Of a DNA stretch of 64,000 nt, positions 13,408-63,880 are shown piece by piece. Numbering within the stretch: the first letter of the stretch is position 1; every line of letters starts with the position of its first letter. Below the pieces are notes generated by a model. That model worked only from the letters and a program-made list of their open reading frames with translations, was not told the DNA's origin and searched no databases. The position numbers and the translations under genes were made by a program. This stretch comes from Hexactinellida sp. DTS-2022 (taxonomy: Eukaryota; Porifera; Hexactinellida): positions 1,612,001-1,676,000 of the forward strand of contig JAPNXP010000007.1 of assembly GCA_028753945.1 (NCBI GenBank). The letters are read 5' to 3'.

Positions 13408-13865
13408 TATTATATTGACTTTCTATTATATTGATTAATTGTTTCTACAATTTAGATTTACATTTACGACTCCACGATACATGGCTCGAAATTTCAACAC
13501 ATCTTTCCCTGGAACCAGCTTTTCTAAAAGTAAATTTATTGATATGTTTATCTAGGGCCCAAATCTATTTTATATATATCGTTCTACTCTTTCGTTTCAA
13601 ACAATATTCGTTTATGTCCAATGTTAAAATAAATATATTAGATTCACTTAATTAATTAAATTATTATGATATTATTCCTGACAAATTATTTAAGTATGAA
13701 CTAACAATCGCTTCTAATTACCGAATTATCTGAATATGTGCTGGGCATAGTATGTGCAGCATTTTTCTTTAGTAATAATCTGGGTGGAGGTGATTCCACG
13801 ATACTTTTTCAGGAAAATACCATATGCATAACTAATCCCTATTTATTTAACTCTCGTTTTTTTAG

Positions 13866-14582
13866 TACCTCGAGAACTCCAGCAATTACTTTCATATGTT
13901 GAATCCACATCACAATCATACAGTGAGATTATGAATTCCCTTTCTACCAGTCCTAGTGTCGCAGATTCAATTTGGGGATTAATTTCTAAGAAAGTTCATG
14001 GACGTAATAGTCAAGCTAAACGCGTAAAACTCTATTTGAAATGGAAGAACAATTCCCATAATATCCGTGAATTGTTAGAACGATTAATTAATCCTGATTC
14101 CACCTCTCAAAATATGTCATTTTTCGTTAGTTTAAGTCTCGACTCTCTCTGCCCTGAAGGGTTAGCATCGTTACAGACCTCTGTTATGCTGCGAGAAATA
14201 TCTCTATGTGTGTCCCTATCTAGTCTTAGCCCTGTAGTTCGTGAAGAAATTTCATGGGAATCGATTGAACCTGATTTGCAGGATGACAGGTTATTGTTAA
14301 TTTGGTCTTCCTCAGCATCTGACTTGGTTACCTACCATGAACTTAAGCAAAAGGACGAGCGTGTTTCATTTGATCTTAGCAATAGTAATTCTATTAGTAA
14401 TACACAAGCATACTATTATTACAACAATAGCCAGGCTCAATTATGGGTTGATGGTTGTAATTTTTATGGTTACCGAAGACGAAATTATTTTGAAAACTTT
14501 TTGAAATTTGAAAACATGATAGATTTGGAACAGTGTAATAGATTTGTTCGTAAATGTATTGATGAGTTTGAGGTTGAGATTA
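13866..14582 (+). CDS. MULE protein, N-terminal part (interrupted)
   Basis: An exon-like frame opens after a strong acceptor (CTCGTTTTTTTAG) and reads VPRELQQLLSYVESTSQSYS before the ATG at 13931, then about 217 codons. It stops being collinear at 14582, where the Transib element inserted after CIDEFEVEI. Removing that element and one GATTA restores an uninterrupted frame into 16396 (EIIEQTPLLLIW). No catalytic motif lies in this part. It is presumably the N-terminal region of the transposase. Upstream coding exons were not found. Confidence 0.75.
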
Positions 14583-15297
14583 CACAGTGGCTTATGGCAG
14601 GGAATAGACCAATTATTGAGGTCTGTATTATTGTGTTTTCCAGCTTGTTTATTGTTATTTGATTGCCATAGTGTTCTAAATTTCAAATTTCCAGCTTATC
14701 TAAAGCCTACAAGTATATAAAAATTGCCTTCGAACGTTGGAGTAATTTAGTTCCATTTGCGGTTTTGTTGGAATTTGAAATAAGGTATTCTACTTAGAGT
14801 CAATATAATTATGTTACTATGGCAATTTTTTGTGTGTACTAAATTTAGATTAGTAATATAAGTATTCTGAAACTGTATTTTTTAATCATAGTAGTGTAGC
14901 TTAAATATTTTTCCAAGAAATATTATTTTTAATATCACCTGTAAAATTAAACAAATTGTAACAAATCTAGATATTTGAAGTGTGCGGAAACACCATTATG
15001 CAAAGAAATGCAAATTGAATATACTTTCAGAAAATTAATTAATGTATGTAGAGTTAGTATACAAAGTCACAACCTCCGGTTCGCTCCGGAAATAAAAATA
15101 TATACTACATTCCAATGTGAGCATTCGGTTACTATGCAAGATTCCAAGTCTCAATTTGGTAACTGCAATTCAATATCCATTGTAACCACCAAGTTATTTG
15201 ATTCTGCTGTTTCATATGTGATATATATTTTGTTTAAGATAGTAGTGACCATAATTCGCGTCAATTTTCATTCATTTTTTTGTGTATTTATCTCAAA

Positions 15298-15919
15298 TGG
15301 CAGCTAGTGATCAGAATATCCCCAAGACCAGACTTGATTTGGCAAAGATTTTGAAGTCGCATGAATTCAATATTCAAGCAGCATTGACTGAAATTGAAGA
15401 GTCTGTTGGAATAAATAATAGTGCCTTGCAATCATTGCTATGGAGGGTTCGTAATAATGTGAGGAAAGGAAGGAAGTCAGTTGACGAATTGGATGGAGAA
15501 TGGTGGAATTCTCAAATCGATTTTAATTATGGACTTTAAAAAGAGTCGTCTATCAACTCCAGCTGACTTTACTACGTCCTCTGTGCCTGATGAAAGTAGA
15601 CCTATCCATAGAAAGAGTCTCGATAGTGTTTATTTGAAACATCAGAGATCACGCCTCTCTAAATTACTGGAGTGCATTAAAGAAATTTCAGAAATTGAAG
15701 ACATGTCAGAAATTTCAATCGCAGCTATTTCTTTACAATTGGTATCCAATCAAGACGATAACCGTCAGTTAGCTCAGATTTCCAAAAAGATTGCCTATGC
15801 TGGAGATTTTAGTGATGCGATAACACGAAAAAAGTTCCGATTGATAAGTAGTTGTTTCTTCTTGATTATTTGGAAATTGGTAAAAGAAAATATACGAGCT
15901 TACGTCAGCTGTAAATAGT
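15298..15919 (+). pseudogene. Transib transposase N-terminal domain only
   Basis: ATG at 15298 reads MAASDQNIPKTRLDLAKILK. One frame change near 15535 joins it to KKSRLSTPADFTTSSVPDES and then HQRSRLSKLLECIKEISEIE, AAISLQLVSNQDDNRQLAQI and SKKIAYAGDFSDAI, followed by a decayed tail (KKFRLISS..LEIGKRKYTSLRQL-like in a shifted frame, near 15835-15910). It aligns block for block with residues 1-200 of the minus-strand protein at 50484-49579. The frame ends at 15916-15918; D-D-E residues are absent. Confidence 0.88.
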
Positions 15920-16069
15920 GTATTATATAATTAATAAACCTATTTTGAATGAATTAAGGCAATAAGTAAATTAATTTTCTAAGCAATTCCTAGGTACAGT
16001 CGACACATAATTGCAAAATATTAATTTAAGGGGTTAAATTAATTAATACCAGAAATTAAAAAAAAACAC

Positions 16070-16340
16070 GGTTGTATGACGTCATAACTAATACATCTGG
16101 AGCCATAAATAATTTTTTTATATGTCAAAAGATGCATAGGCATCGATAACCCATATGTAATTAATTCATAGTACAACGCAAACTCGAAAGATATAGCGGA
16201 TTTCAGAATTTCAAAAAAATAAGTAACATCATCATGACGTCATAACAGACAAAGTATGAGGTGTAAATAAATTTTGATATGACCAAACATTTTCTAAACA
16301 TCGATAACCCATATGTAATTAATACATTATAATAGGCTAA
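16070..16340 (+). repeat. two direct repeats in the Transib derivative
   Basis: Two diverged copies of roughly 100-110 bp share ATGACGTCATAAC at the start (16077, 16233), CATCGATAACCCATATGTAA near the end (16140, 16298) and TTAAT. They lie between the truncated ORF and the 3' terminus of the derivative. Function unknown. Confidence 0.7.
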
Positions 16341-16395
16341 AGTGCACACAGATATCTATTCCCTACCAACTGCGATTTTAAGCCACTGTGGATTA

Positions 16396-18656
16396 TTGAA
16401 CAGACACCATTATTGTTAATTTGGTCAGTTCTTAAACAAATTAATTGTAAATGTATTGACAAGTTGTTTAAAAAACAATACGCACTTTTGACCAACGAGC
16501 AACTAAGTGAATTCGTACATTGGATAACAGATTTACGTGATCAGTTTTCGAGTAAAGGTGTTGATGTATTGAAAATAATTTATACTGATTGTTTAGCTAT
16601 AATATCTAACCCAGAAGTAGCTCCAGAATTGTCCCCACTTCCTGAAAATGTACCTCTTCATCTTGTTGAAGAGGAATATAATGCCGAGGACGCCATCAAG
16701 TGTAGTAATAATATCATTAACAACGTAAATGATACTGTTTCAAATTTGCATGGGTGTAATGAATGTAACTTTGTACCCGATTTGAGTGTTAATGGTGAAT
16801 TTTTTCTGGACGTGGACGAGTGGAATAGCATTCATTTTATTGATATACAAGGAAGAGATAAGTTAAATCGAGATTGGACAGCTTTGTTTAGCAGTAAAGT
16901 TGCTAAAATCTATCCCATGTGTGTTCTTAAATTTAACAATTATTGGTTTAAGAAGATTTATAGTCGTAAAGTAAACTCACCATACTTTCGAGCATGTGCT
17001 GACTGTAAGTTCCTTAACTGATATTCGTTTGAGTTTTACATAAATGAAAACAAAACTAGTCTACCAGGATCTACAAATACCTTAGCAGTACACTTTATAT
17101 CTAAAGGTTCTCTCTCAGTGCAACACAATAATGGAGAGAACAAATATGCACGCTATGTATCTGGTATTCAGCGAACACATCTAGGTGGAATTCTACAACA
17201 TAACTCTGTTTCAAAATATTTTCATAAACAATTTGGTTGTATGGATAATGTTGTCGAGTACTGTAGTGGTAATTTTTCTCATCTTAAGACCCAAGATTGC
17301 TTAAGACAGATAAAATTTGAAGTTAACTCGTCTAACAGATTTTCAAACGATATGATCACGGATATTTCTGCAACTCAGGAATACTACCGTAACTTATTAA
17401 ATGAGAAACCAATTACTGGCTACGTACAATATTGTGTTAAGGAACCGTTCATTATCCATTTATACACTATGCAACAGATAGAGCTATTGAAACTTTTAAA
17501 TAAAGAGATAAATGTTTTTTTGGATGCTACGGGTTCTCTTATTAGTAAACCTCAATCGGTCACAAAACCAATCTACTATTATGCACTCACTCTACAGCAT
17601 CCAGACTACCATACTCGCCCGATACCAGTAGCAGAGATGATTAGCTCGGACCATGGTACCGCAGAGATATCACATTTTCTAAATAAATGGTATTTAAATT
17701 CTAAGTTTGTTCTCAACAAAGAAATACACATAACTTGAATAGAAATTGATTACAGTTGGGCTATGATTCATAGCACTTGTATAGCATTTAATAAAAGTAA
17801 CATTGTAGGCTACCTAGAGAGTTGTTGGAAAGTAGTAAATACAAATGTAAAGGTTCTGAATAACTTAACTGTTATACATTTATGTTCCGCCCACATAATG
17901 CATAGATTAAGTCATAACTTAGATAAGAAATTTAAGATTCAAAAAAGTTTAAAACATCTTATTTTACACGTGTTTGCTGTAATTTTAAAAGCAAAAAGTA
18001 TGCAAGAGATAAATAGGGTTTTCGTAGGATTAAGTAATATTTTATCTATACAGTGTTATAATGATACTGTCAGCTCCAGTTTAGTGGAATTAAATGGTTT
18101 AGTTAGAGGCGACATGCTATATCAACTTGACTATGTGGAACCACCTGAAGATGATTGCGCGCAAGTAGAAAACGCCACTACATATCGTGCTAAATCACCC
18201 TTTGGTAGACATTTTGATTCACTAGTATCTAAGAATCGTAATGATTTAAAAACTGATAAAATTAGTATGCTAAATGGCTGTTATTGTCCCGATATTTTAG
18301 AATATTTGTTAACATACTATATGCCAATCTTGCCTTTATGGACTGGAATTATATTATCTCGAACTGGTAATCAAGAAGAAACTAAAGCAAGTAATGCCAT
18401 AGCAGAAAATTGGTTTAGGATAGTTAAACATCCAATATTCGAATCTAATATACACATCAGACCTGGTGATTTTATTCGTACAATGTATAGTAATATTCAT
18501 GATAGAATTTCTGCTTTCAAATTTGGATTTCATCCCTTGGCTTCTAAAATATTTAAAGCAAAGAAGCGTAAACTAGAAGTACCTAATGAAGAAAATTGTA
18601 AGGAGGAATGGTCTGGGAGGAGCAAAATTCATAGGAGTTATATAACCCAGATGTAG
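16396..18656 (+). pseudogene. MULE DDE transposase, catalytic part
   Basis: One frame, broken only by TGA at 17019-17021 and TGA at 17736-17738, continues the 13866-14582 segment. Motifs: SPYFRACADCKF, GYVQYCVKEPFIIHLYT, first Asp in NVFLDATGSL (about 17520), PVAEMISSDHGTAEISHFL, second Asp in IEIDYSWAMIHSTC (about 17748), LCSAHIMHRLSHNL (the MULE Cys-x2-His motif), and Glu in AIAENWFRIVKHP (about 18410). All catalytic positions survive. The first stop falls in CKFLN(stop)YSFEF and the second just before the second Asp. A related fragment ends the window (63880-64000). Confidence 0.88.
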
Positions 18657-18745
18657 ATAATGTAGATAAAGTTTTTTTTTAATGTTATCAAACTTTAAAT
18701 AATAATGTACAGTCAAAAAGAGCTAAATATTTAAAGAGAAAGATT

Positions 18746-19486
18746 TTGGACTCTGAATTTCCGGGAAAAAAGATAATTCTAGAAAAAGAGGTCGTATCCA
18801 CAGCCCCTGATGTGGTCCTCCAGGCAGCTGATGTCGATATTATCACTGACATCGATATAATTGAAATTTGTACAATGAATTACGACCTTCCACCCTATAA
18901 GCCACTCTCCCACCCTGGTCAGATAGATATTTGTCATAATCTGAATTTTAATGTTGTAATATCGCCAGTACATAACAAGATTAAGAGTAATGTAAAGAGA
19001 CCACTGAATGAGTATGTACCTAGCAAGACTTATTGTGTCCCCGGAGATGGAAATTGTTTGTTTTCTTCTATAGCATATTGGATTACGGGTTGTTCGGATA
19101 ATTGTCACGAAATACGGAAACTTATCGTTGATAGTATGATAAATAAATTAAGAGTAATATGTGTGAAATTTATTAATAATAAATACACAAATACTTACAG
19201 AAATATCGGAGATTATGTGGCTAAAACTGGTATGAAGAGTAATGCCAAATGGGGCGGAGATTTAGAATTATTTGCAGCAGGTCTCTTATTTAGGACAGAT
19301 ATTTGGCTCTTTTCGAAAGACACGGGTAACACATGGAATGTTTTCTCTGGAAAAGGTGCTAGTATAGATCAGGTAATTAATACACCACCCGCCAACACCA
19401 CTGGATCTATTTACATTGTACATACTGGTAATCATTATGAACCAGTCTTGGAATTATCAGATAAGGAGATAGAGACGAAGTTTTAG
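18746..19486 (+). CDS. OTU-family cysteine protease domain of the MULE
   Basis: 246 codons, no stop. The domain begins YCVPGDGNCLFSSIAYWITG (Asp101, Cys104), continues WGGDLELFAAGLL (169-181) and ends GNHYEPV (His230), so the Cys/His pair and the DGNC oxyanion motif of OTU deubiquitinase-like proteases are intact. There is no ATG at the start. A T9 run at 18672-18680 separates it from the transposase frame, so it is probably the transposase C-terminus after a frameshift. OTU or ULP peptidase modules are known passengers of MULEs; their role in transposition is not established. Confidence 0.88.
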   Translation: MDSEFPGKKIILEKEVVSTAPDVVLQAADVDIITDIDIIEICTMNYDLPPYKPLSHPGQIDICHNLNFNVVISPVHNKIKSNVKRPLNEYVPSKTYCVPGDGNCLFSSIAYWITGCSDNCHEIRKLIVDSMINKLRVICVKFINNKYTNTYRNIGDYVAKTGMKSNAKWGGDLELFAAGLLFRTDIWLFSKDTGNTWNVFSGKGASIDQVINTPPANTTGSIYIVHTGNHYEPVLELSDKEIETKF

Positions 19487-30155: not shown

Positions 30156-31741
30156 TTAAGTAAAAATATTGAATCTTTGTTCTATATTGCACCTGCATAT
30201 TGGACATTGTTCCAAGGATGCACTGCATTCCTCACAACATTTTGCATGCCTGCAAGGAAGAAATAGGACTGTTGTTATTCTCTGAAGTAAGCACACACAG
30301 CAATTAACCTGATTATCATCTTCAGGCTCTTCATCCGTCAAAGACTCATCTTGGAAATCTCCAAGGCTAATTGAGTTTGTAACTGGGTGAATAGAGCTGG
30401 CTATGGCATCCACATATCGAGTTGGACTATATTCTCCCGATACAAGCATTTCTTTGCATTGAGCACGAAACGAATCATTTTGGATGTCCTTCAACTCACG
30501 ACTGCGAGTAATATCAATACCTTTTCCTAGGCGCTCAATGTCTAAATCTGTGTCTTGTATCGTCTTATTGAGGATTTCAACAAAAAACCATACACGCGGG
30601 TGAGAGACCACGATGTCCTTTTTTAATCTATAGTGGTAGTTCTCTGCTCCATTATTTGTGATATGTTGGCAGTTAAAGATAAATAATTCGTTCTTAGGAA
30701 TGGAAATAATCCATTGTCGTCTTATATACTTCTTAAAGATTGCATATTGATTCTTATGAACTTCACTAAGAGGCAAATCTCTCACTTCCAGTTGATTGAA
30801 TACAAATATAATCTGATCCTAAGGAAGGAAAGGAAGAGTCATAAATGATCTAACTAGTTTTTTAAAATCTGGATTAGTTTGATAAAGAGTAGATAGACCT
30901 AAGTTTTGTATTTTCCGCCAAATACATTGAGTATAGTGAAAATGACATCCCCGTAGATGAATACCTTGGAATTGTCTCTTTACAGCATTTCTAGCCCCTT
31001 TCTCCCAATCATACATTCCATGGCTAGGTTTTAGTTGTGGAACAAGTTCGTGTATTCTAGCGAGAACAGCTGTATAGATTTCCTCATGCTTGGCTGTAAG
31101 AAGACAATGGATAACCGGCAGTACATGGCGTCCAAAGCGGGCGAAGATAGTCCACAATTGATAGAACTGGGATGGTACCGTATAAAATGTACCATCAAAA
31201 TAGATGTGATCCACTTCAGGGAGAGAAATCTTCATCTTATCTGAGGAAAATATCACACCAGTGTCACCACCTACTTGTACTTCACCTTTATAGTATATAC
31301 CAAATCAGATGATACAATAAGTTGACAAAACTCAGTAGCACCTTTAGGAATAGGTGGTTCAATTTCTCTTCTTGCTCGATACATTGCACTCTCCAAATTT
31401 TTATAGGACACATGAACTGCAGAAGGATCATCACGAACAACATCTTTGAACACTTTAGATAACCTTTCACGTGAACATCTCGCCGCAGAAACACATTTAG
31501 ATTTTAAAATTAAAAATTCAGGATTATAATCAGAAACTAGATGGTTATGGTGTTTTATGGGATCAATAGTATTGGATTCAGAGTTTAACTTTGCAGATCC
31601 TTTACACTTTACTTTCTGATGTAAAACACATCGGAGATACATTACCCCAGGATTGGCTGTGTGTTGTGTGTATTTAAAACCATCTGGCGTAGTGAAAATT
31701 GTTCCCCTTCTATGTTTATAATTTCCGCATACGTAGTCCAT
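30156..31741 (-). pseudogene. FLYWCH-MULE-RING transposase, two lesions
   Basis: ATG at 31741. FLYWCH zinc finger at residues 3-70 (Cys38, Cys46, His65, His67). MULE core with Asp in IYFDGTFYTVP, Asp in MYDWEKGARNAVK, the GCHFHYTQCIW motif, and Glu in NNGAENYHYRLKKD. C-terminal C3HC4 RING (CCVCLLQRI, LPCRHAKCCEEC, QCPICRCN) ending NIFT. Only a frameshift near 31257-31280 and a TAG at 30819-30821 spoil it, so this is the youngest of the three copies. RING domains normally act as E3 ubiquitin ligases; fusion to a MULE is the unusual feature. Confidence 0.93.
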
Positions 31742-31879
31742 GTTAAGATTAGAGTGGAAATAAAGTTAGAGATAAGTACGTATTCGAATAAACAAATTGT
31801 AAAACGGACACTTATTTATACAATGAAACGTCTCTAGTATACATTTGTATGGTTTACAATTTATCGACAATTGTATTTT

Positions 31880-43910: not shown

Positions 43911-45025
43911 CTGTAGCATTAATGGCTTTAGCTGAAAGCGAAGGAAAAGTGTAATTTTTAATGGACACTACAATTAATTCTGATTCTAAACTTTACAAAC
44001 AACAGGAATACAGCTAAAGGCAGGAAAAGTTAATGTCAATATCACTAGGTGTTTGTTTGATACAAAGATGGCATATATCCTTGACGGAGCCGGAGGATCA
44101 CCATGTCACTTGTGCACGTGCACACGAGATCAAATGAAGGACATTGAGTTGATAAAGCAGGGTATCGATTCTGCGAATGAGATATTCGCTGAGGTCGATG
44201 AAGACGATTTTTTTTCTCTTCCAAGTAATGAATGATTTGGATTAACACACAAGCCTCTATCAGAGGAAAACATCCTATCTGCTTCCCCTCTACATGGCTA
44301 TCTGAGAGTATTCGGATGGTTCATGCAGTTGGTGTACCACATACATGCTGGCGAGAAGAAATGGGTACCATCTTCACCAAAGATTCGCCAATCGATGGAA
44401 TTTGTTCGTGGTGTTCAATGAGAAAAAATAAACGTTCGAATCGATTTTCCCACTAATCAAGGTGGTACAACCTCTACAGGAAATGTGGTTCGAACTTGTT
44501 TCCAACGTGTTAACGATAGCAACAGAGACTTCTTTTATTGGATCTTAACATTGATCTTGTGAGTTCCACCAATCTCTTACAGTTATCTACACTAACTTAG
44601 GTGTAGTCTTGCGCATATTTAACTCTGATGAGCGAATAGACCACGAAAAATTCGCAACACTGTGTAGTGACACTTACGAACTCATAAGAGATACTTTTCC
44701 TTGGGCGAGTATTACCCCAACGTTACATAAGGTGTTGGCTCATAGCGCTCAATTGATTAGAGATTATAATGGGGGGAGAGGTCTGAGATCATTGTCAGAA
44801 GAAGGTTTAGAGGCGTGCCATAAGCACATCAGACAATATAGCGAACAATTGGCTAGAAAATTCTCCTTCGAAGCAAATATACAAGATATCTTCATCCGTC
44901 TTACTTCTCAGTCAGATTACTTCTCATTCTACCAAAGGAAGCGAATTGGGAGGAAAATTGCTAAAAAGTACTCACAGGGGAATTCGAAAAATCAAGAACT
45001 CTTTGATAGCATGCTCATAATGTAG
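43905..45025 (+). pseudogene. Transib catalytic C-terminal half
   Basis: Reads TMRPVALMALAESEGKV, then MFDTKMAYILDGAGGSPCHL (44050), EDDFFSLPSNE, ASPLHGYLRVFGWFMQLVYH, IDFPTNQGGTTSTGNVVRTC, then 44609-45025 ITPTLHKVLAHSAQLIRDYN and LSEEGLEACHKHIRQYSEQL with the catalytic Glu, AQSDYFSFYQRKR-like tail and stop. It aligns along its length with the minus-strand protein at 49582-48308, with several frameshifts. It has lost the Zn-knuckle tail. Confidence 0.9.
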
Positions 45026-45300: not shown

Positions 45301-45340
45301 AATACCTATTTCCTATGAATACAAGATTTTGACCACTGTG
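45301..45340 (-). promoter_or_regulatory. Transib 3' terminus, RSS-like
   Basis: Read inward from 45340: CACAGTG, then 20 bp, then GGAAATAG followed by GTATT. It lies 315 bp downstream of the Transib stop at 45025, as expected for the 3' end, and matches the long-spacer ends at 48085 and 16390. The next bases are GAGAC; the partner duplication is not identifiable because the 5' end is rearranged. Confidence 0.75.
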
Positions 45341-46745: not shown

Positions 46746-48084
46746 ATGAGTTGTATCGTACCCGGATGTACCTCGAATTATCGGGGAGAAGAACATTTCA
46801 CAAAAGTATTAGTTTTCCCAAGGATGAACAACTTCGTGAAAAATGGTTTAGAGTCATTCCAAGACCTGTAGAAGATTACCAGAACTATATAAATATAAAG
46901 GTAAATACTCTTATACACTTATTTTAAACTAATCATTAGTTCACATTTGAAATTATTAAATCATTTCTTAGGTTTGTATGCTCCACTTCAAAGAGGAATT
47001 CATTGAAAGGACATTCGAATATTTTCATGGACAGAGATGGTTGTGGCACCACGAGACCGATTGTCCCTGACGAAGACTGCTGTACAAACTATATTCCCGA
47101 ACTGCCCCAGCTACTTGACAAACACTACAGAGAAGACGAAAAGAATTTCGAGAGACGATAGAGAGCTAACAATGGTTCAAACTGCAATCAATTTGAGCAT
47201 AGTGGACTATACATCCACCATAGATAAGTTCTCAATCAGTATTCTTTGTGATGTTGTTGATAAGCTGAGTTGCATCGATCTTTCTAATTGTTGGGTCGTC
47301 CACAAACCCGACACTGACACCTTGTTTTTTCTAAAAATCACCACTTTAGATAACCAACCTTCGATTCAATGTTCACTTGTAATAGACCAATGTTTATTGG
47401 TTAATGGTTTTGATCAACACAAGCGCCAAATATATTTATCTCTCAACAAAATTGATGACATCTGACAGATTGAGACATTGTTAATAGAAATTGAAACATT
47501 CCTAGTTATTAGTCCTAAATGCATGCCCACCCTCCGTTAAAACGCATGTTGAAAATGCTATTATTGAGTTGTAAAGTGCCATTGAACTAATAGAGCAGAG
47601 TGATAAAAATATAGAATTTCAGATACCCCAAATCGAGAACTTACCTATATTACCAAAAATTGGGATCATGTTTCTACTTGATCGATTGAGATATTTAATA
47701 ATTTCAAAATATTGGCGTCGTTATAGCGTGACAACGCAGGTTTTTCCCCTCAAGGTACACGGCATTTCTCCCGCTTGTTTTCGGCTAATCCAATCCTCAA
47801 ATTGTTTGAATCTCCCTCATGAACGTAATCTACTCAAAATTAAAAATTCAATTGGTCTAGACTCTAGAGAGTGAATATTTAAGTGTACTTAAGGAATTTT
47901 CATCTACATTCAAAGATTTAGAGAGGCGTGTTATACTTCAGATGGAAGGAGTTCATATAAGTAGAGATGCTAGTTATAAAGGTGGTATAATTATTGGCTC
48001 TATTGACGATCCGGAAGACCCACCCACCACTGTATTTTATATAATGATATCTAGTTTGATGACTAAGTTCTCTACCATTGTAAG
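46746..48084 (+). pseudogene. P-like transposase, THAP domain and first half
   Basis: ATG at 46746; exon 1 ends 46900 (AAG/GTAAATAC), exon 2 starts 46972 after TTTCTTAG. THAP C2CH finger: CIVPGC at the start and, after a frameshift, SISFPKDEQLREKWFRVIPR and the exon-2 VCMLHF (Cys-x2-His), then LTKTAVQTIFPNCPSYL. Further: ILPKIGIMFLLDRLRYLIIS, PLKVHGISPACFRLI, and the first catalytic region GVHISRDASYKGGIIIG (about 47950-48000). The frame runs through SSLMTKFSTIV into the Transib insertion at 48085. Several frameshifts. Confidence 0.88.
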
Positions 48085-51000
48085 CACAGTGGCTTAATTT
48101 GGCATTTGGTAAGGAATAGGTATCTGGGTGAATTTTTACCGTATATAATGTATTATTTGCCTATAGGTTATCGAATATTAGGAATCGATTGCGATAATTA
48201 GACCTCCCCTAAGTCTTGCGGTTTTCGAATTATGACGTAATCACAAATTCCCAAATTTAGAAAGCAAGAAATATTTTTACAAATTTTTGTATTTTTTAGT
48301 ACCAAATTTATTTAACAATAAGAGAATGTACTAGACTATCTATAGATGACTCTATTGTGTTGTTTGAGTCGTATTTGCTACAACACTTGGCAGACCTTCT
48401 AGTGTGACCCTCTTCGCCGCATCTCTCACACCTCAATTTAGAGCGAAATCCTAATAAAACTGGATCACTTTCACAAGCTAGCCTAACAAAGATGTCAATA
48501 ATGTTATCTTCAAAGGATGTCTTTCTTGCTAAATGTTCTCTGTATTTTCTAATTAATTTATTACAAGCCTCTGAACCTTCTTCAGAGAAACATTTAAAAC
48601 CATACCCAGAATTAAAGTCCCTTAACAATTCTTCGGAGTGTGCCAATAATTTGTGCAATGTGGGAGTGATGTTTGCCCATGGAAATGATTCAAGGATTAA
48701 GAGATAGGTACCTTTACAAAGTTTTCCAAGTTCATTGGTATTGATCTTTCTTCCACTGTTGAAGATTCTCAGAATTGCAGATAATTGTGTATGAAGTTTT
48801 GAGAGTGCTTCTTTGTGCTGTTGCTCAACTAATGAAGATACACACTCAATGAACTGGGACTCGCTAGAAAAAGCTTTTCGTGCAACGCTACCAGTTGACG
48901 TCGTTCCACCTGAAGGATCCGGTAGATCTATCTTTAATCCGATCCTTTCAAGTACCACGTTGCGCACAAAGTGCATCGATTGGCGGATAGCTGGGGATGT
49001 AGGCGCCCATTTTAATTTACCACTATTCAAATTGTAAACTAGTAAATTAAACCACCTGAAAATACATGTATAAGAGTGTAGAGGAGAAGCCGGTGTGATA
49101 TTGATGGTTGAAATAGGTTCGTGTGTTAAATTAACTCGATCATTGGATGGAAGAGAGAAAAATGATTCGATATCTTCCAGTTCTCCAAACATTTCTATTG
49201 CATCAGAAATGTGCCTGTTAATGGGAAACCCTTGCAATATTAGCTGTTGATCCTTCAATTCTTTATGAGTTGCTGTGCATAACTGACAGCTTGCTCCCCC
49301 TGCCCCTGAAAGTATTGCAGCCATTTTCCCGTCGAACATTGACCTGGTAATATCGACAGACACATGACCCATTTCAGGTATATCAATTCCTTCATTCTTC
49401 AATTTGTCAGTGTCAGGGTTTATTATGTCAGTCATAAATTGTCTGATATTTGACTCGTTTTCTTTAGCAGCGCACAAAAAGATTGGCCGTTGACAAAATG
49501 GAGAGTTAGGGGTAGTATTTTTCCAGAGGTCGTTGCCACTTGAAGACTTGATGGAAATGGATTTGAAGCAAAAAAATATCAATGACTTGGTGGAAGTATT
49601 TGTATTTGTTGGTTGTAGATAGTATGACTTCCTGATCCATCTAAACCATCTACTATTTGATAACTAAGCGGGAAATCCTCTACAAATGGTCGAGATATTG
49701 TAGAAAGGATTCTAGTAAATGTATGCTCTATATATTGGGCGTAGGATACACATACACCAATCGGTTCTGAAACATTAGGATATAGCTTTATTGAAGACCG
49801 TAAAATTATACTGTTTCTCCTATCGACAAGCTTCTGATAAGCAGGAAATTGAATATAACTAGATAGTAGATGTTGACGCAGCTTAGTATATTTCCTCTTG
49901 CCTATTTCCAGCATATCAAGAAGGAACAATGACTTATCAACATCAACATCTTTATTAACTACTTTACCAAAATCCCCAGGAAAATTGTCAGTTACAATTA
50001 ACTTAGATACCTTAGCTACTTGTCTGGAATCATACTCATTAGAAACTAACTGTAGAGCGAGTGCAGCAATCTTGATTTCTGAAATGTTTTCAAGTTCAGC
50101 GAGTACTCTGATGGAGTCTAACACATTTGATAGACGTGATCGCTGTTGTTTAAATGAAAGGTTGTCAATACTCTTCCTATGATGATGCACTGAAGAATTT
50201 TGTATATCCGCATCGAAAGATAAACACCTCTTCTTCAAATCTGGCTCGAGAAATACAGCAGAGTTCCACCATTCTCCACCCAGTGAGTCAATTGATTTTT
50301 TTGACTTTCTCATAGTATCCCTCACCCTAGATAGGATTATATGTATACTATCTCTCTTAGCAAGGTCTAATTCAAAATATTCCTCCAATTTGCCAATCGT
50401 TTGAGTAATATTATTGTCATTTTCTTTCAGGATTCTTGCAAAATCAAGTCTGGTTTTGGGGATAGTAATTGAGCTTTCAGCCATAGATGAGGATATAAAT
50501 ACGTAATTCGTTGTTATAATTATTGAAATCTTCCTTATTCTTTATATTATCTTACATACACGTGTATATATTATAATTTGTAGATATAAACAACAGGACA
50601 TTTGCTTATTCCGAAAGGTATATTGTTACATAGCAACAAATAACAATAATTGGAATTTCCATAGCAACATAAATTGACAATGGAATTCAATAACATTTTA
50701 GAAGTTGCGCACTGTTTCGGAAGCTAAGATTTCCATAATTAATTCTTACAACATTAATCTATAACGTGTCAAAATTTCTCGTTGATCTTTGATGTACTTT
50801 TTTTTTCCGCATACCTGAGATTTTAATATAAAAAATGTTGTACATTTTTGTACATAGAGCTTTTACCCCCTGTTGAAATTAAAATGCATCAGTGTAACTT
50901 TAAATCAGTATAGAAATATATATTTAGCATACTCGTTTTGTATATATTTGAATACAAAATAACCACGATTCCTTATACATTGTAATTCAGAGTGAAATGA

Positions 51001-51208
51001 AATATGTTGTATTTTTAGAATTCTCAAAACCACAAATGGAACTATAATTTGATGCAATTCATAAGTATATTTATAGGCGTAGTTTGTGTTCAAATCAATT
51101 GAAATTTCATATGATCGTTAGTATACTATCTAAATTTAATTTAATACCATTTAGAAGCATTTTGATAACCACAAATATTTTCCTATTTCCACGTGTTAAG
51201 CCACTGTG
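48085..51208 (-). mobile_element. Transib element with RSS-like asymmetric ends
   Basis: 3124 bp, inserted in the P transposase. GTAAG is duplicated exactly (48080-48084, 51209-51213), the 5-bp length typical of Transib and RAG transposition. The 3' end (48085) is CACAGTG + 21 bp + GGAATAG; the 5' end (from 51208) is CACAGTG + 11 bp + GGAAATAG. Both share CACAGTGGCTTAA. The single gene runs 50484 to 48308 with one frameshift. Removing it rejoins the P frame (STIV / RLVPLGSSS). Confidence 0.95.
48308..50484 (-). pseudogene. Transib (RAG1-clan) transposase, one frameshift
   Basis: ATG at 50484. The N-terminal ORF (301 codons to 49579) has KTRLDFARILKENDNNITQT, LGGEWWNSAVFL, LLDMLEIGKRKYTKLRQHLL and the first Asp motif IVDGLDGSGSHTIYNQ. 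A frameshift in an A7 run (49570-49576) leads into the second ORF: TTPNSPFCQRPIFLCAAKEN, Asp84 in SMFDGKMAAILSGAG, CQLC (99-102), SPLHSYTCIFRWF, PSGGTTSTGSVARKAF, ITPTLHKLLAHSEELL, the Glu motif FSEEGSEACNKLIRKYREHL (334-338) and SDPVLLGF. The tail C385-x2-C388-x3-G392-H393-x6-C400 resembles the CCGHC zinc motif of RAG1-like and Transib proteins. About 720 residues with one lesion, so young. Confidence 0.92.
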
Positions 51209-52123
51209 GTAAGGCTAGTCCCTCTTGGTTCTAGCTCTGCTGCTGCACTGTTACCCATTGTTATTAAGACAATTTCGGACATTGAAAGTTGTAATTTATA
51301 TGTAGATGCTGTCTGTACCGACAATTACCCCCTAAATGTGAGGTTATATGAACTTCTTTCCCTTAATCACAAAACACTGAGACCTAAAGTTATACATCCT
51401 TGTGACCCAAATAGAGACCTTATTTTATTTTTTGATATAGCCCATATTTTAAAAGCAATTCGAAATAATTGGTTAAATTTGAAAGACTACGAGAAAGTAT
51501 TTATTTTTCCTAATTTAATGATTGTATCACTCCTAACCATACATCTGCTGAAGATGAATCTCAGGCTCATTTGAGAGTATCAATCAATACTTCAGGGCTC
51601 AAAATTTATACAACTAATTTTGCTAATCTTTGTATCCTAAAGTATGCTATTCAGTTTTTGATGACATTAGGACCTTATACAAATTTGATAGATGTAATAT
51701 TTTTAAACGAGCTCCAAAATTAACTTCCAAAGCTTGCTGGCCATCTAGCTTGGAAAGACAGAATGTAAATTTGGCACTTAAGATTTTTCACGAGTCAACT
51801 TCAGCTGGCCTATTAGCTCTCAATTTTGAAAGGAAAAGTATAAGTCAAAACCAAACTGTTGATTTTCTGATGTTAATTAATGACATCTGGAAAATTTTTA
51901 ATGTAAATTGGGTCGGGAAAGGTATACGTTTTAATGACGACTTTTCTAGACCTCTATCTCCAGACGACTCTCGAATCTTGTTCCTACGAAATGTAGTTAA
52001 CTGGTTAGACTGTTGGAAAAACCTTCCCACTGTTAAGGAAAACTGTCATCTCAGACATTCACAAGTCTGAAACACACTTGCAACGCACTGCCCTTGCTTG
52101 TTGATATGCTTTGTACCAATTTA
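51209..52123 (+). pseudogene. P-like transposase, middle part
   Basis: Continues the P gene: RLVPLGSSSAAALLPIVIKT, second Asp region DAVCTDNYPLNVRLYELLSL, FFDIAHILKAIRNNWLN, then after a frameshift KLTSKACWPSSLERQNVNLA, DFLMLINDIWKIFNVN, FLRNVVNWLDCWKNLP, TSLKHTCNALPLLVDMLCTN, where the hAT insertion starts. These are the GTP-binding-insertion and catalytic segments typical of THAP9/P-like proteins. Confidence 0.88.
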
Positions 52124-62252: not shown

Positions 62253-63880
62253 TCAAAATACTCCAACTGTACACATCGCATTTAAAACAATTTGATTTCC
62301 AGATAGCAATATCATCATCATTTCCATGTATATCAAGGTGAGTTCTACTAATAACCTTCTAGAGGGACCGTCTACAAGCAAAGTCAACAGCTGATTATTA
62401 TTTTCTATTGCAATCATTATCTTCCATAAAGTTATAACTGAAGTAAGAACAGGCTCGGACGGATACTTAAGTCCGCCACGATTTGTTAATTGTAAGAGCT
62501 TAAACTCAGTATGTGATTCAACATCAAAAACAAATTCTTTATCATAAGTTAAAGTATCAGTGCACACATGGCATTCCGGAGATCTTTTTAAGAACTTATG
62601 GACCGTATAGCCTGCGATAAAAGCTAACGACTGAAGGATTTGTTGAGAGCATTCAATGGATGATAGATCGCCAATTTCATCAAGAAAAGGCATTACAGCT
62701 ATTCCATCATCACGTGATGTATCAGAGGGGTAGAAAAAGACTTTACAAATGTCTGAATCGTTTGGAAAGCGTCTTGTTGGTCTGCAAACATGTTTAATAT
62801 ACTAGAAAGTTTAAGACGACGCTCGGTTTCAAGAATCTGAAGGTAAGAAATATGGTAATTCGAACCCGACATCATACGGTAGAGTCCAAAATGGTGTTCC
62901 AACGGGTCAGTTTGTAAAAGGATGATAATACATAAGAAAAGCCACAATTTTCAGTTAGATGGTTAGTTATAAGTGGTAAGGCAGTACAGGCGTGTCTAAA
63001 ACTAGTATACGTTTGCTTACTCAATTTACCCGTTTTGTCAGGTAAATCCTGCCAAGCATCTAGCCAAAATACTATACGTGTCAAAAATAAAAATCGTTCA
63101 TCGTTTAAGATCAACGGTCTTGAGAGGCTATCATTTAAACGGGTCCCTTTGAACGGCGTATTGATATTGAATATTTTCCAAAGTGTAAGAAGGATACTTA
63201 CGAAACTAGATGTATTATTACGATACTCCGGACAACGACTTTCATTTTGGATTTCAAGAGCAGATAGTGTAAGTTCGCTAACAAACTTCAAAACCAATTT
63301 GACATTTTGCCTTTCTAAACTAGATGGAAAACAAGCTTTTACAGTCAAGTGAAGGGCTAGTTTTGCTAAACTGTATCGTTCAGAATTGCAGAGAAGGCGT
63401 ACATCTTGAAAGGAAGCAGAATGGACACTGAGGGGGTAGCTGCATTTATCAATGTCAATATATTCAAAATTTGGAAAACCAAAAGTTTTATCTAAATTTT
63501 TCTGATTTAACCAATTATTGCGTATAGTTTTCAATATATGGACAAAATCTAATGTAAGGAAGAGAGGTCTATTTTCATCAAAAGGGTGGGGTACTCTAGT
63601 TTCCAGCTTTCCATTAAGAGAAAACAATTTATACAAGTTTACATTCAATGGGTAGTTATCGGTAGAAATCATTTGGACCTTTAAACCACAATGCTCAATA
63701 TCGATTATACAAGATTTGATAGTGGGAAAGATTTTTTAGCTGAGATAGTTGCACATGGTAACAAACGGGTAATACAAGACCATTTCCTATGCAAACTAGA
63801 CACCATAATCGCGATACAGTTTTCGTCGGATCCTCAGGGTTCAAATTTGGTGCAAATATTTTCCCGCCTTTATAATCTTT
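62253..63880 (-). pseudogene. P-like transposase, family 1 relative
   Basis: Minus strand from about 63880: DYKGGKIFAPNLNPEDPTKT (first-Asp region), then CIIDIEHCGLKVQMISTDNYPLNVNLYKLF in pieces (second Asp), TLDFVHILKTIRNNWLNQKN, SVHSASFQDVRLLC, ACFPSSLERQNVKLVLKFVS, FLTRIVFWLDAWQDLPDKTG, and after a frameshift LQTDPLEHHFGLYRMMSGSN, ISYLQILETERRLKLSSIL, then SLAFIAGYTVHKFL and NRGGLKYPSEPVLT. The N-terminal THAP part is missing. Lesions are few (two or three). Confidence 0.9.

What the first reader, a model, noticed from the sequence alone, without database searches (positions are those of the whole stretch)
48085..51208. Transib ends with a 12/23-like asymmetry: heptamer plus 11-bp or 21-bp spacer
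Seen: both ends of this element start with CACAGTG. At the end preceding the ORF start (51208 inward) GGAAATAG follows after 11 bp; at the other end (48085) GGAATAG follows after 21 bp. The copy at 14583-16390, whose ORF points the other way on the + strand, has the same assignment: 11 bp at the ORF-start end, 21 bp at the other. A third 3' end (45340) has about 20-21 bp. Known: RAG1 derives from Transib-like transposases and pairs 12- and 23-bp spacer signals with heptamer CACAGTG. Inference: this family may already pair two unlike ends about one helical turn apart in difference, with GGAATAG as the second recognition block in place of the RAG nonamer.
Basis: partly seen in the sequence, partly recalled or inferred. 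Interest (0 to 1): 0.95.

Follow-up and report, generated by a model that had tools for sequence, protein, structure and literature searches.

The report
Sponge Transib transposons with paired unlike ends
Jumping genes related to the antibody-gene recombinase RAG1, here in what is very probably a glass sponge, carry one short-spaced and one long-spaced end whose inner recognition word sits about one DNA turn further in, which makes the origin of the 12/23 rule of V(D)J recombination testable.

Summary
Both window elements have 5-bp duplications, CACAGTG at both ends, and GGAA(A)TAG 11 bp further in at the ORF-start end and 21 bp further in at the other. In the host genome (112 Mb; very probably a glass sponge) 526 of 537 CACAGTG-N(4-34)-GGAAATAG sites have spacers of 10-12 or 19-22; the reversed control has none. 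All 62 convergent end pairs among 284 listed sites are short+long, offset 9 or 10 bp. A search using only transposase, heptamer and duplication found both ends in 16 of 30 loci. With the window element they form 13 families (42-75% protein identity to one reference). The inner word differs among families but matches within an element, shifted 9-10 bp, in 12 of 13. The transposase has a homologue of RAG1's nonamer-binding domain, absent from the solved HzTransib chain. Best reading: a Transib transpososome pairing unlike ends, core on the heptamer, NBD-like domain on the inner word. Binding and a cleavage-level pairing rule are inferred. Asymmetric Transib ends are already known; replicated, co-varying inner words were not seen in the paper listings and passages I searched.

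The parts
48085..51208 (-). Transib element 1 (broken transposase frame), 3124 bp, TSD GTAAG at 48080-48084 and 51209-51213
48085..48091 (+). terminal heptamer CACAGTG, long (L, 3') end
48113..48119 (+). second block GGAATAG, 21 bp from the heptamer (L end)
51202..51208 (-). terminal heptamer CACAGTG, short (S, 5') end
51183..51190 (-). second block GGAAATAG, 11 bp from the heptamer (S end)
49579..50484 (-). transposase, N-terminal open frame (301 aa from ATG)
   Evidence: 69% to P0001 residues 1-299
49972..50184 (-). NBD-like helical region (residues about 101-171), homologous to the RAG1 nonamer-binding domain
48308..49663 (-). transposase, catalytic and C-terminal part (other frame), ends in a zinc knuckle CxxCxxxGH
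   Evidence: (HzTransib 6pqn E 2.1e-21)
14583..16390 (+). Transib element 2, 1808-bp internal-deletion derivative, TSD GATTA at 14578-14582 and 16391-16395
14601..14607 (+). second block GGAATAG, 11 bp from heptamer 14583-14589 (S end)
16356..16362 (-). second block GGAATAG, 21 bp from heptamer 16384-16390 (L end)
15297..15918 (+). remnant of the transposase N-terminal part incl. NBD-like region, in two frames
45334..45340 (-). heptamer of a third L end, with GGAAATAG at 45306-45313 (20-bp spacer); decayed element, partner end not found
43993..44556 (+). Transib transposase fragment on the inner side of the third end
   Evidence: 51% to P0053

Best explanation
These are Transib cut-and-paste transposons whose transposase, a RAG1-core relative, assembles on one short (5') and one long (3') end. 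The catalytic core reads the terminal heptamer and cuts next to it, giving 5-bp target duplications. The N-terminal domain, homologous to RAG1's nonamer-binding domain and probably dimeric like it, reads the inner block, which lies about 11 bp from the heptamer at one end and about 20-21 bp at the other, i.e. on the same face of the helix one turn further in. The asymmetry is kept because the paired complex fits one short and one long arm, as in the 12/23 rule. Shown: anatomy, duplications, spacing, polarity, block sharing within elements, NBD homology. Inferred: that the NBD-like domain reads the block, that it is dimeric, and that like pairs work badly.
For: Spacing: 537 CACAGTG-N(4-34)-GGAAATAG sites, reversed control 0; 248 at spacer 10-12, 278 at 19-22, so 11 at the other 24 lengths. 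Pairing: 284 listed sites (of 651 counted) give 62 convergent neighbour pairs within 8 kb; 62 of 62 are S+L; offset 10 bp in 46, 9 bp in 16; 36 distinct end combinations. In loci L001-L038, 15 convergent pairs, 15 of 15 S+L, 8 of 15 with perfect TSD; 7 of 10 pairs fetched for it have a perfect TSD. Block-blind test: among 30 transposase loci (20, 10) 16 show exact heptamers at both ends plus identical 5-bp TSD. Best shift between the two ends is 9 or 10 in 12 of 13 families; shuffled L ends give mean 1.7, maximum 5 of 13; with other word lengths and start positions it is 9 to 12 of 13. Exchanging L ends: 14 representatives, observed 110, mean 86, maximum 100, 0 of 2000 as high; 13 families, 106, mean 81.5, maximum 96, 0 of 5000; seven families with divergent blocks 57 of 63, best of 5039 other pairings 56. 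Polarity: 33 of 33 end-transposase relations, some loci redundant. NBD: profile of 11 families finds the RAG1 NBD 3gna first, E 1.5e-4; the full profile aligns with RAG1 chains from the NBD on but with HzTransib only from profile position 168. Predicted fold: RAG1 and HzTransib chains first.
Against: The families are related by descent, so 62 pairs are not 62 independent events; independent support is at most about 13 families. One family (C5:3979847) keeps 11/21 positions but only 5 of 9 bases match at shift 10, and its best shift is another. One TSD-flanked copy (C2:3509315) has a 7-bp short spacer, shift 14, while its close relative C12:3059406 has 11. In a first version of the end comparison, with words starting at position 8, 8 of 12 elements had best shift 9 or 10; two of the other four (one family) had shift 0 because their terminal repeat is longer. 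One decayed locus (C14:2913611) has an L-type end on the 5' side with no partner. In the most divergent lineage looked at (C2:3228258) an L end but no S end was found. 14 of 30 transposase loci gave no end pair with exact heptamers and perfect TSD. The RAG1 GRPR stretch is not conserved in the NBD-like region, so its specificity cannot be read off by homology. Extra conserved tracts in S and L ends could carry the asymmetry instead of spacing. PMC9435367 ascribes an NBD equivalent also to Subgroup II Transibs, which include symmetric ones, so an NBD alone does not explain asymmetry. No binding or cleavage data.
Confidence: 0.68

Rival explanations
1. Inherited asymmetry without a pairing rule: one ancestor had unlike ends, all families inherited them, and the enzyme would accept like ends if it met them.
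For: All families are homologous. HzTransib, which has been tested biochemically, has symmetric ends (PMC8289069, passage seen).
Against: Spacer and block sequences have diverged among families at 42-75% protein identity to P0001 while the 9-10 bp offset and within-element block identity were kept. No S/S or L/L pair among the 62, most of which are shorter than a full element.
Confidence: 0.25
2. End identity is set by end-specific elements, not by spacing: S ends by the A-rich tract at 29-36, L ends by AAAATGGCAnTT at 12-23 and GYATTT at 36-41, each bound or bent differently, as left and right ends of other transposons.
For: Position-wise conservation over 13 families. P elements have ends that differ in spacing, 9 and 21 bp, to an inner transposase site (PMC7776569, passage seen).
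Against: The shared, family-specific block at a fixed offset is better explained by one reader used twice. Not exclusive with the main reading.
Confidence: 0.3
3. The inner block is a regulatory site (promoter or host-factor site), not a transposase site.
For: The S end lies upstream of the gene.
Against: The block is at both ends, also in non-autonomous copies, and is specific to the element family.
Confidence: 0.07

Closest known systems
Asymmetric Transib transposons (Drosophila Transib5, Anopheles Transib2/N1/N2/N3; Subgroup I Transibs)
   Same: Transib transposase, RSS-like heptamers, unlike spacers at the two ends (PMC8355894 passages; PMC9435367 whole main text)
   Different: Those in PMC8355894 are described with 12 or 23 +/-1 spacers and RSS-like nonamers; here the offset is 9-10 bp and the second block is another word that differs by family
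AanRAGL transposon of Aureococcus (RAG1L+RAG2L)
   Same: 5-bp duplications and two conserved elements with 4/13-bp spacing behind a 13-bp element, so the second starts at positions 18/27 (PMC9435367); in a typical family here the block starts at 19/28 (C1:2361385)
   Different: Carries RAG2L; different block sequence; not a Transib
Vertebrate RSS and the 12/23 rule
   Same: Heptamer CACAGTG, one short and one long spacer about a turn apart, RAG1 NBD homologue
   Different: No nonamer at 12 or 23, offset 9-10 instead of 11, no pairing rule tested
HzTransib
   Same: Transposase core
   Different: Symmetric TIRs (PMC8289069, passage); the solved chain has no counterpart of the NBD-like region
Drosophila P element
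   Same: 9/21-bp spacing of the inner transposase site, likened to 12/23 by its reviewers (PMC7776569, passage)
   Different: THAP-type transposase and 8-bp duplications (same passages)

Membership tests
Transib superfamily | Transib/RAG1-type transposase core | tested here: met
   HzTransib 6pqn E 2.1e-21 with the window ORF, 2.9e-52 with the profile; fold matches of the relative P0001
Transib superfamily | 5-bp target-site duplication | tested here: met
   Both window elements and 16 of 30 transposase loci
Transib superfamily | CAC-type heptamer at both ends | tested here: met
Subgroup I Transib (Tao 2022) | asymmetric TIR pair | tested here: met
Subgroup I Transib (Tao 2022) | CTT1 zinc tail (CTT*: Cx2Cx3GHx4C in PMC7204232) | tested here: inconclusive
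   A CxxCxxxGH knuckle with a longer last gap in the window protein and its nearest relatives; 8 of the 19 aligned proteins lack the cysteines altogether
Subgroup I Transib (Tao 2022) | alpha11-alpha12 region in ZnB and position in the tree | not tested
   No tree with reference Transibs was built
RAGL/RAG transposon | RAG2L gene beside RAG1L | not tested
   No RAG2L search was run; ORFs of 50 aa or more listed in the element beyond the transposase frames are 71 aa or less
RSS (12/23) | A-rich nonamer at 12 or 23 bp from the heptamer | tested here: not met
   Second block is GGAATAG or other family words at 10-12 and 19-22. Runs of four or more A at 20-24 bp occur in S ends of 7 of 13 families and in no L end
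RSS (12/23) | cleavage only of unlike pairs | not testable with these tools
   needs biochemistry

The most novel reading that the evidence does not exclude
One genome holds at least six clearly different private lock-and-key pairs (NBD-like domain and inner block) under one fixed one-turn pairing geometry that is close to that of the algal AanRAGL. If so, a 12/23-type rule, with a re-programmable second signal, was a general property of Transib/RAG1 transpososomes before vertebrate RSS existed, and orthogonality between families comes from the second block while the heptamer stays shared.
Probability: 0.35. Interest if true: 0.8.

Novelty: new variant of a known kind. Interest (0 to 1): 0.6.

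Why it matters
Where the 12/23 rule came from is an open question; most Transib families, including HzTransib, are said to have symmetric ends (PMC8289069, passage). Here is a genome with hundreds of replicated short and long ends, several families whose transposase frame is open in the assembly, and co-varying second blocks. Domain and block swaps between families could test directly whether the NBD-like domain reads the second signal and whether unlike spacing is required.

Tried and rejected
Relatives elsewhere: P0001 in viral contigs and alignment A1 in genome contigs gave no encoded relative, so no second species could be tested. Of the 120 protein hits listed (137 found), the named ones all name Oopsacas minuta; the host is inferred from this and not otherwise confirmed.

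A partner for the third end (45340) was sought by its 5-bp flank and by heptamers: none. The most divergent lineage looked at (C2:3228258) gave no S end.

GGAATAG as a universal block: rejected. Deletion of one turn as the whole difference between the ends: rejected, since L and S ends have their own conserved tracts.

Dropped or changed before a count: C2:3509315 was left out of the 13-family counts as a copy of the C12:3059406 family (it is in the 14-representative test); of three further families two copies each were found and one was used. The start of the compared stretch was moved from position 8 to 12 (on) to leave out the terminal repeat; one search gives the result for four starts and four word lengths. 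In one search a hand-picked set of six divergent-block families (52 of 54; best of 719 other pairings 49) did not include C5:3979847; one search repeats it with that family. A note says 10 of 12 where the best-shift count is 8 of 12.

A Mantel-type test of NBD against block divergence was considered and not run: with 13 related families it would be confounded by descent. An NBD-only fold was not run.

Papers: Kapitonov & Jurka 2005 and Liu et al. 2019 are not held; their content is taken from other papers' words. Of PMC9435367 the whole main text was seen; of PMC8355894, PMC8289069, PMC7776569, PMC7204232, PMC4411706, PMC6941560, PMC11844651, PMC9885083 only passages. Searches for related reports (listings seen).

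Full report
WHAT IS THERE. The window element 48085-51208 is a Transib transposon: TSD GTAAG on both sides, CACAGTG at both ends, and a transposase in two frames on the minus strand. The C-terminal part matches the HzTransib chain 6pqn at E 2.1e-21. The second copy, 14583-16390 (TSD GATTA), is an internal-deletion derivative, about 96% identical in the parts compared to an element whose frame is open elsewhere (C17:2322531). The third end at 45340 belongs to a decayed element with a transposase fragment at 43993-44556. The best protein matches are from unnamed ENA sources; the first named one is from Oopsacas minuta, a glass sponge (69% identity). The held genome has 112.4 Mb in 18 contigs. 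That the host is a hexactinellid is an inference.

SPACING, GENOME-WIDE. CACAGTG-N(4-34)-GGAATAG occurs 114 times, reversed control 11. With GGAAATAG it occurs 537 times, control 0. The 100 rows listed of each show two main classes; for GGAATAG 4 of 100 lie outside 10-12 and 20-22 (15, 17, 17, 19), for GGAAATAG 1 of 100 outside 10-12 and 19-22 (15). Whole counts for GGAAATAG: 248 at 10-12 bp and 278 at 19-22 bp, leaving 11 at the other 24 lengths.

PAIRING. I pooled 284 listed sites of both patterns, out of 651 counted; the tool lists at most 100 per search. 62 convergent neighbours lie within 8 kb: 62 of 62 are short+long, the offset to the shared AATAG is 10 bp in 46 and 9 bp in 16, and there are 36 distinct end combinations. 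The copies are related, so the chance figure printed by that script is not a fair probability. Neighbours in other orientations, which are not pairs of one element, mix all classes. Perfect TSDs were seen in 8 of 15 convergent pairs of loci L001-L038 and in 7 of 10 pairs fetched for the purpose. Pairs without one may be old, or may be neighbours from two elements.

A TEST THAT DOES NOT USE THE BLOCK. Transposase matches were found with protein P0001 (68 matches). I fetched flanks of 30 of them, chosen for open or nearly complete frames and spread (ten more were asked for and not given), and looked only for CACAGTG-like heptamers on both sides with the same 5 bp outside. 16 of 30 gave exact heptamers and an identical TSD (12 of 20, 4 of 10). 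With the window element these are 17 elements, 14 groups in the script, 13 families after joining C2:3509315 with C12:3059406. Their proteins are 42-75% identical to P0001.

In these families the inner block is not always GGAATAG. Examples of stretches identical at the S and L end of one element: GGAAGTAGG; TAGGTCGATTAG; ATCTTCGAATAGGCA; CAGGAGAAA; ATCAGCCGTA; CAAGTGGAAAT. The best ungapped match between the two ends of one element falls at shift 9 or 10 in 12 of 13 families, against a mean of 1.7 and a maximum of 5 when the L interior is shuffled. This is with 9-base words from position 12 on; with words of 8 to 11 bases from positions 8 to 13, 9 to 12 of 13 families have 9 or 10 as the only best shift. 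Exchanging L ends among 14 representatives never reached the observed score (110; mean 86; maximum 100; 2000 exchanges), nor among the 13 families (106; mean 81.5; maximum 96; 5000 exchanges). Among seven families with divergent blocks the true pairing scores 57 of 63 and the best of 5039 others 56. So the block co-varies within an element while geometry is kept. This is the strongest evidence that one reader reads both blocks.

RESULTS AGAINST. C5:3979847 has diverged at both ends; at shift 10 only 5 of 9 bases match and its best shifts are -1 and 17. C2:3509315 has a perfect TSD but a 7-bp short spacer; its relative C12:3059406 has 11. C14:2913611, a decayed locus, shows an L-type end on the 5' side. 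In C2:3228258 no S end was found. 14 of 30 loci gave no perfect end pair. In the first end comparison 8 of 12 elements had best shift 9 or 10.

POLARITY AND FURTHER ANATOMY. The short end is at the 5' side of the transposase and the long end at its 3' side in 33 of 33 relations found in the first 68 loci and the window (14 S, 19 L; some loci are redundant); the contrary case is C14:2913611. Over 13 families S ends also conserve an A-rich tract at positions 29-36 (AAAAATTT), and L ends conserve an AAAATGGCAnTT-like stretch at 12-23 and GYATTT at 36-41. Runs of four or more A lie 20-24 bp from the heptamer in 7 of 13 S ends and 3-5 bp from it in 6 of 13 L ends. The extra turn in the L end is therefore not blank DNA. 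A bending role is a guess.

THE ENZYME. A profile of 19 transposases matches RAG1 chains from the NBD onward and HzTransib only from profile position 168. A profile of the NBD-like region of 11 asymmetric families finds the RAG1 NBD crystal structure 3gna first (E 1.5e-4); a designed repeat protein comes second (0.0023, no stretch passing alone), then RAG1 chains. The GRPR stretch of RAG1 aligns with non-identical residues but one. The predicted fold of the relative P0001 (pLDDT 77.9) matches RAG1 and HzTransib; rows that include the RAG1 NBD have high rmsd, as the domain's placement is not predicted well. An NBD-like segment was recovered in 14 of 14 groups, in C15:2210502 only partly because of a frame break.

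MECHANISM. Likely: a transposase dimer brings one S and one L end together; the core cuts at the heptamers; an NBD-like dimer holds both blocks, and an extra turn on one arm lets both be reached in a complex that is asymmetric or tilted, as described for RAG (recalled). Shown are anatomy, duplications, spacing, sharing of blocks, homology.

COMPARISON. Asymmetric Transib ends are not new: PMC8355894 (passages) reports 12/23 asymmetry for Drosophila Transib5 and four Anopheles elements after Kapitonov & Jurka 2005, and PMC9435367 (whole main text) states that all Subgroup I Transibs have asymmetric TIRs and that Subgroups I and II have an NBD equivalent. In AanRAGL a 13-bp element with 4/13-bp spacing puts the second element at 18/27, within one base of the 19/28 of a typical family here. 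P elements have 9/21 (PMC7776569, passage). What I did not see in the listings and passages searched is a genome-wide count, sponge Transib ends, or blocks that co-vary within elements at a fixed offset. Subscription papers are mostly not held, so this is a limited statement.

VERDICT. Observation confirmed; interpretation partly supported; a well-replicated new variant of a known kind.

Noticed in passing
13832-14662 and 16341-19486: Element 14583-16390 sits inside a run of open frames ending in an OTU-like protease domain (18683-19486, Pfam E 2.1e-10). Allowing for 1808+5 bp, the frames on both sides agree, so the insertion hit an ORF; what that gene is was not worked out.
   Followed up: partly
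15297-15918: The 1.8-kb non-autonomous copies keep the transposase's N-terminal and NBD-like coding part but not the catalytic core, which recalls P-element KP repressors; the frame is split in the five copies where it was read.
   Followed up: partly
30156-31765 (-): Pieces of a MULE transposase with a FLYWCH finger, next to a RING finger frame.
   Followed up: no
62872-63735 (-): Weak match to a TNP-like GTP-binding insertion domain (E 0.0018, below the family's cut-off).
   Followed up: no
G000 C2:3509315 (L123, L124): A copy with perfect TSD but a 7-bp short spacer, a natural spacing variant next to a relative with 11.
   Followed up: partly
L133 (C14:2913611 5' side): An L-type end on the 5' side of a decayed transposase, without a partner.
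   Followed up: no
proteins P0039, P0043, P0046, P0048, P0053, P0055, P0057, P0063: These related full-length transposases lack the C-terminal zinc-knuckle cysteines that the window family has, while families in this genome whose NBD is nearest to P0055 and P0057 still have asymmetric ends (C9:627458, C15:2210502).
   Followed up: partly
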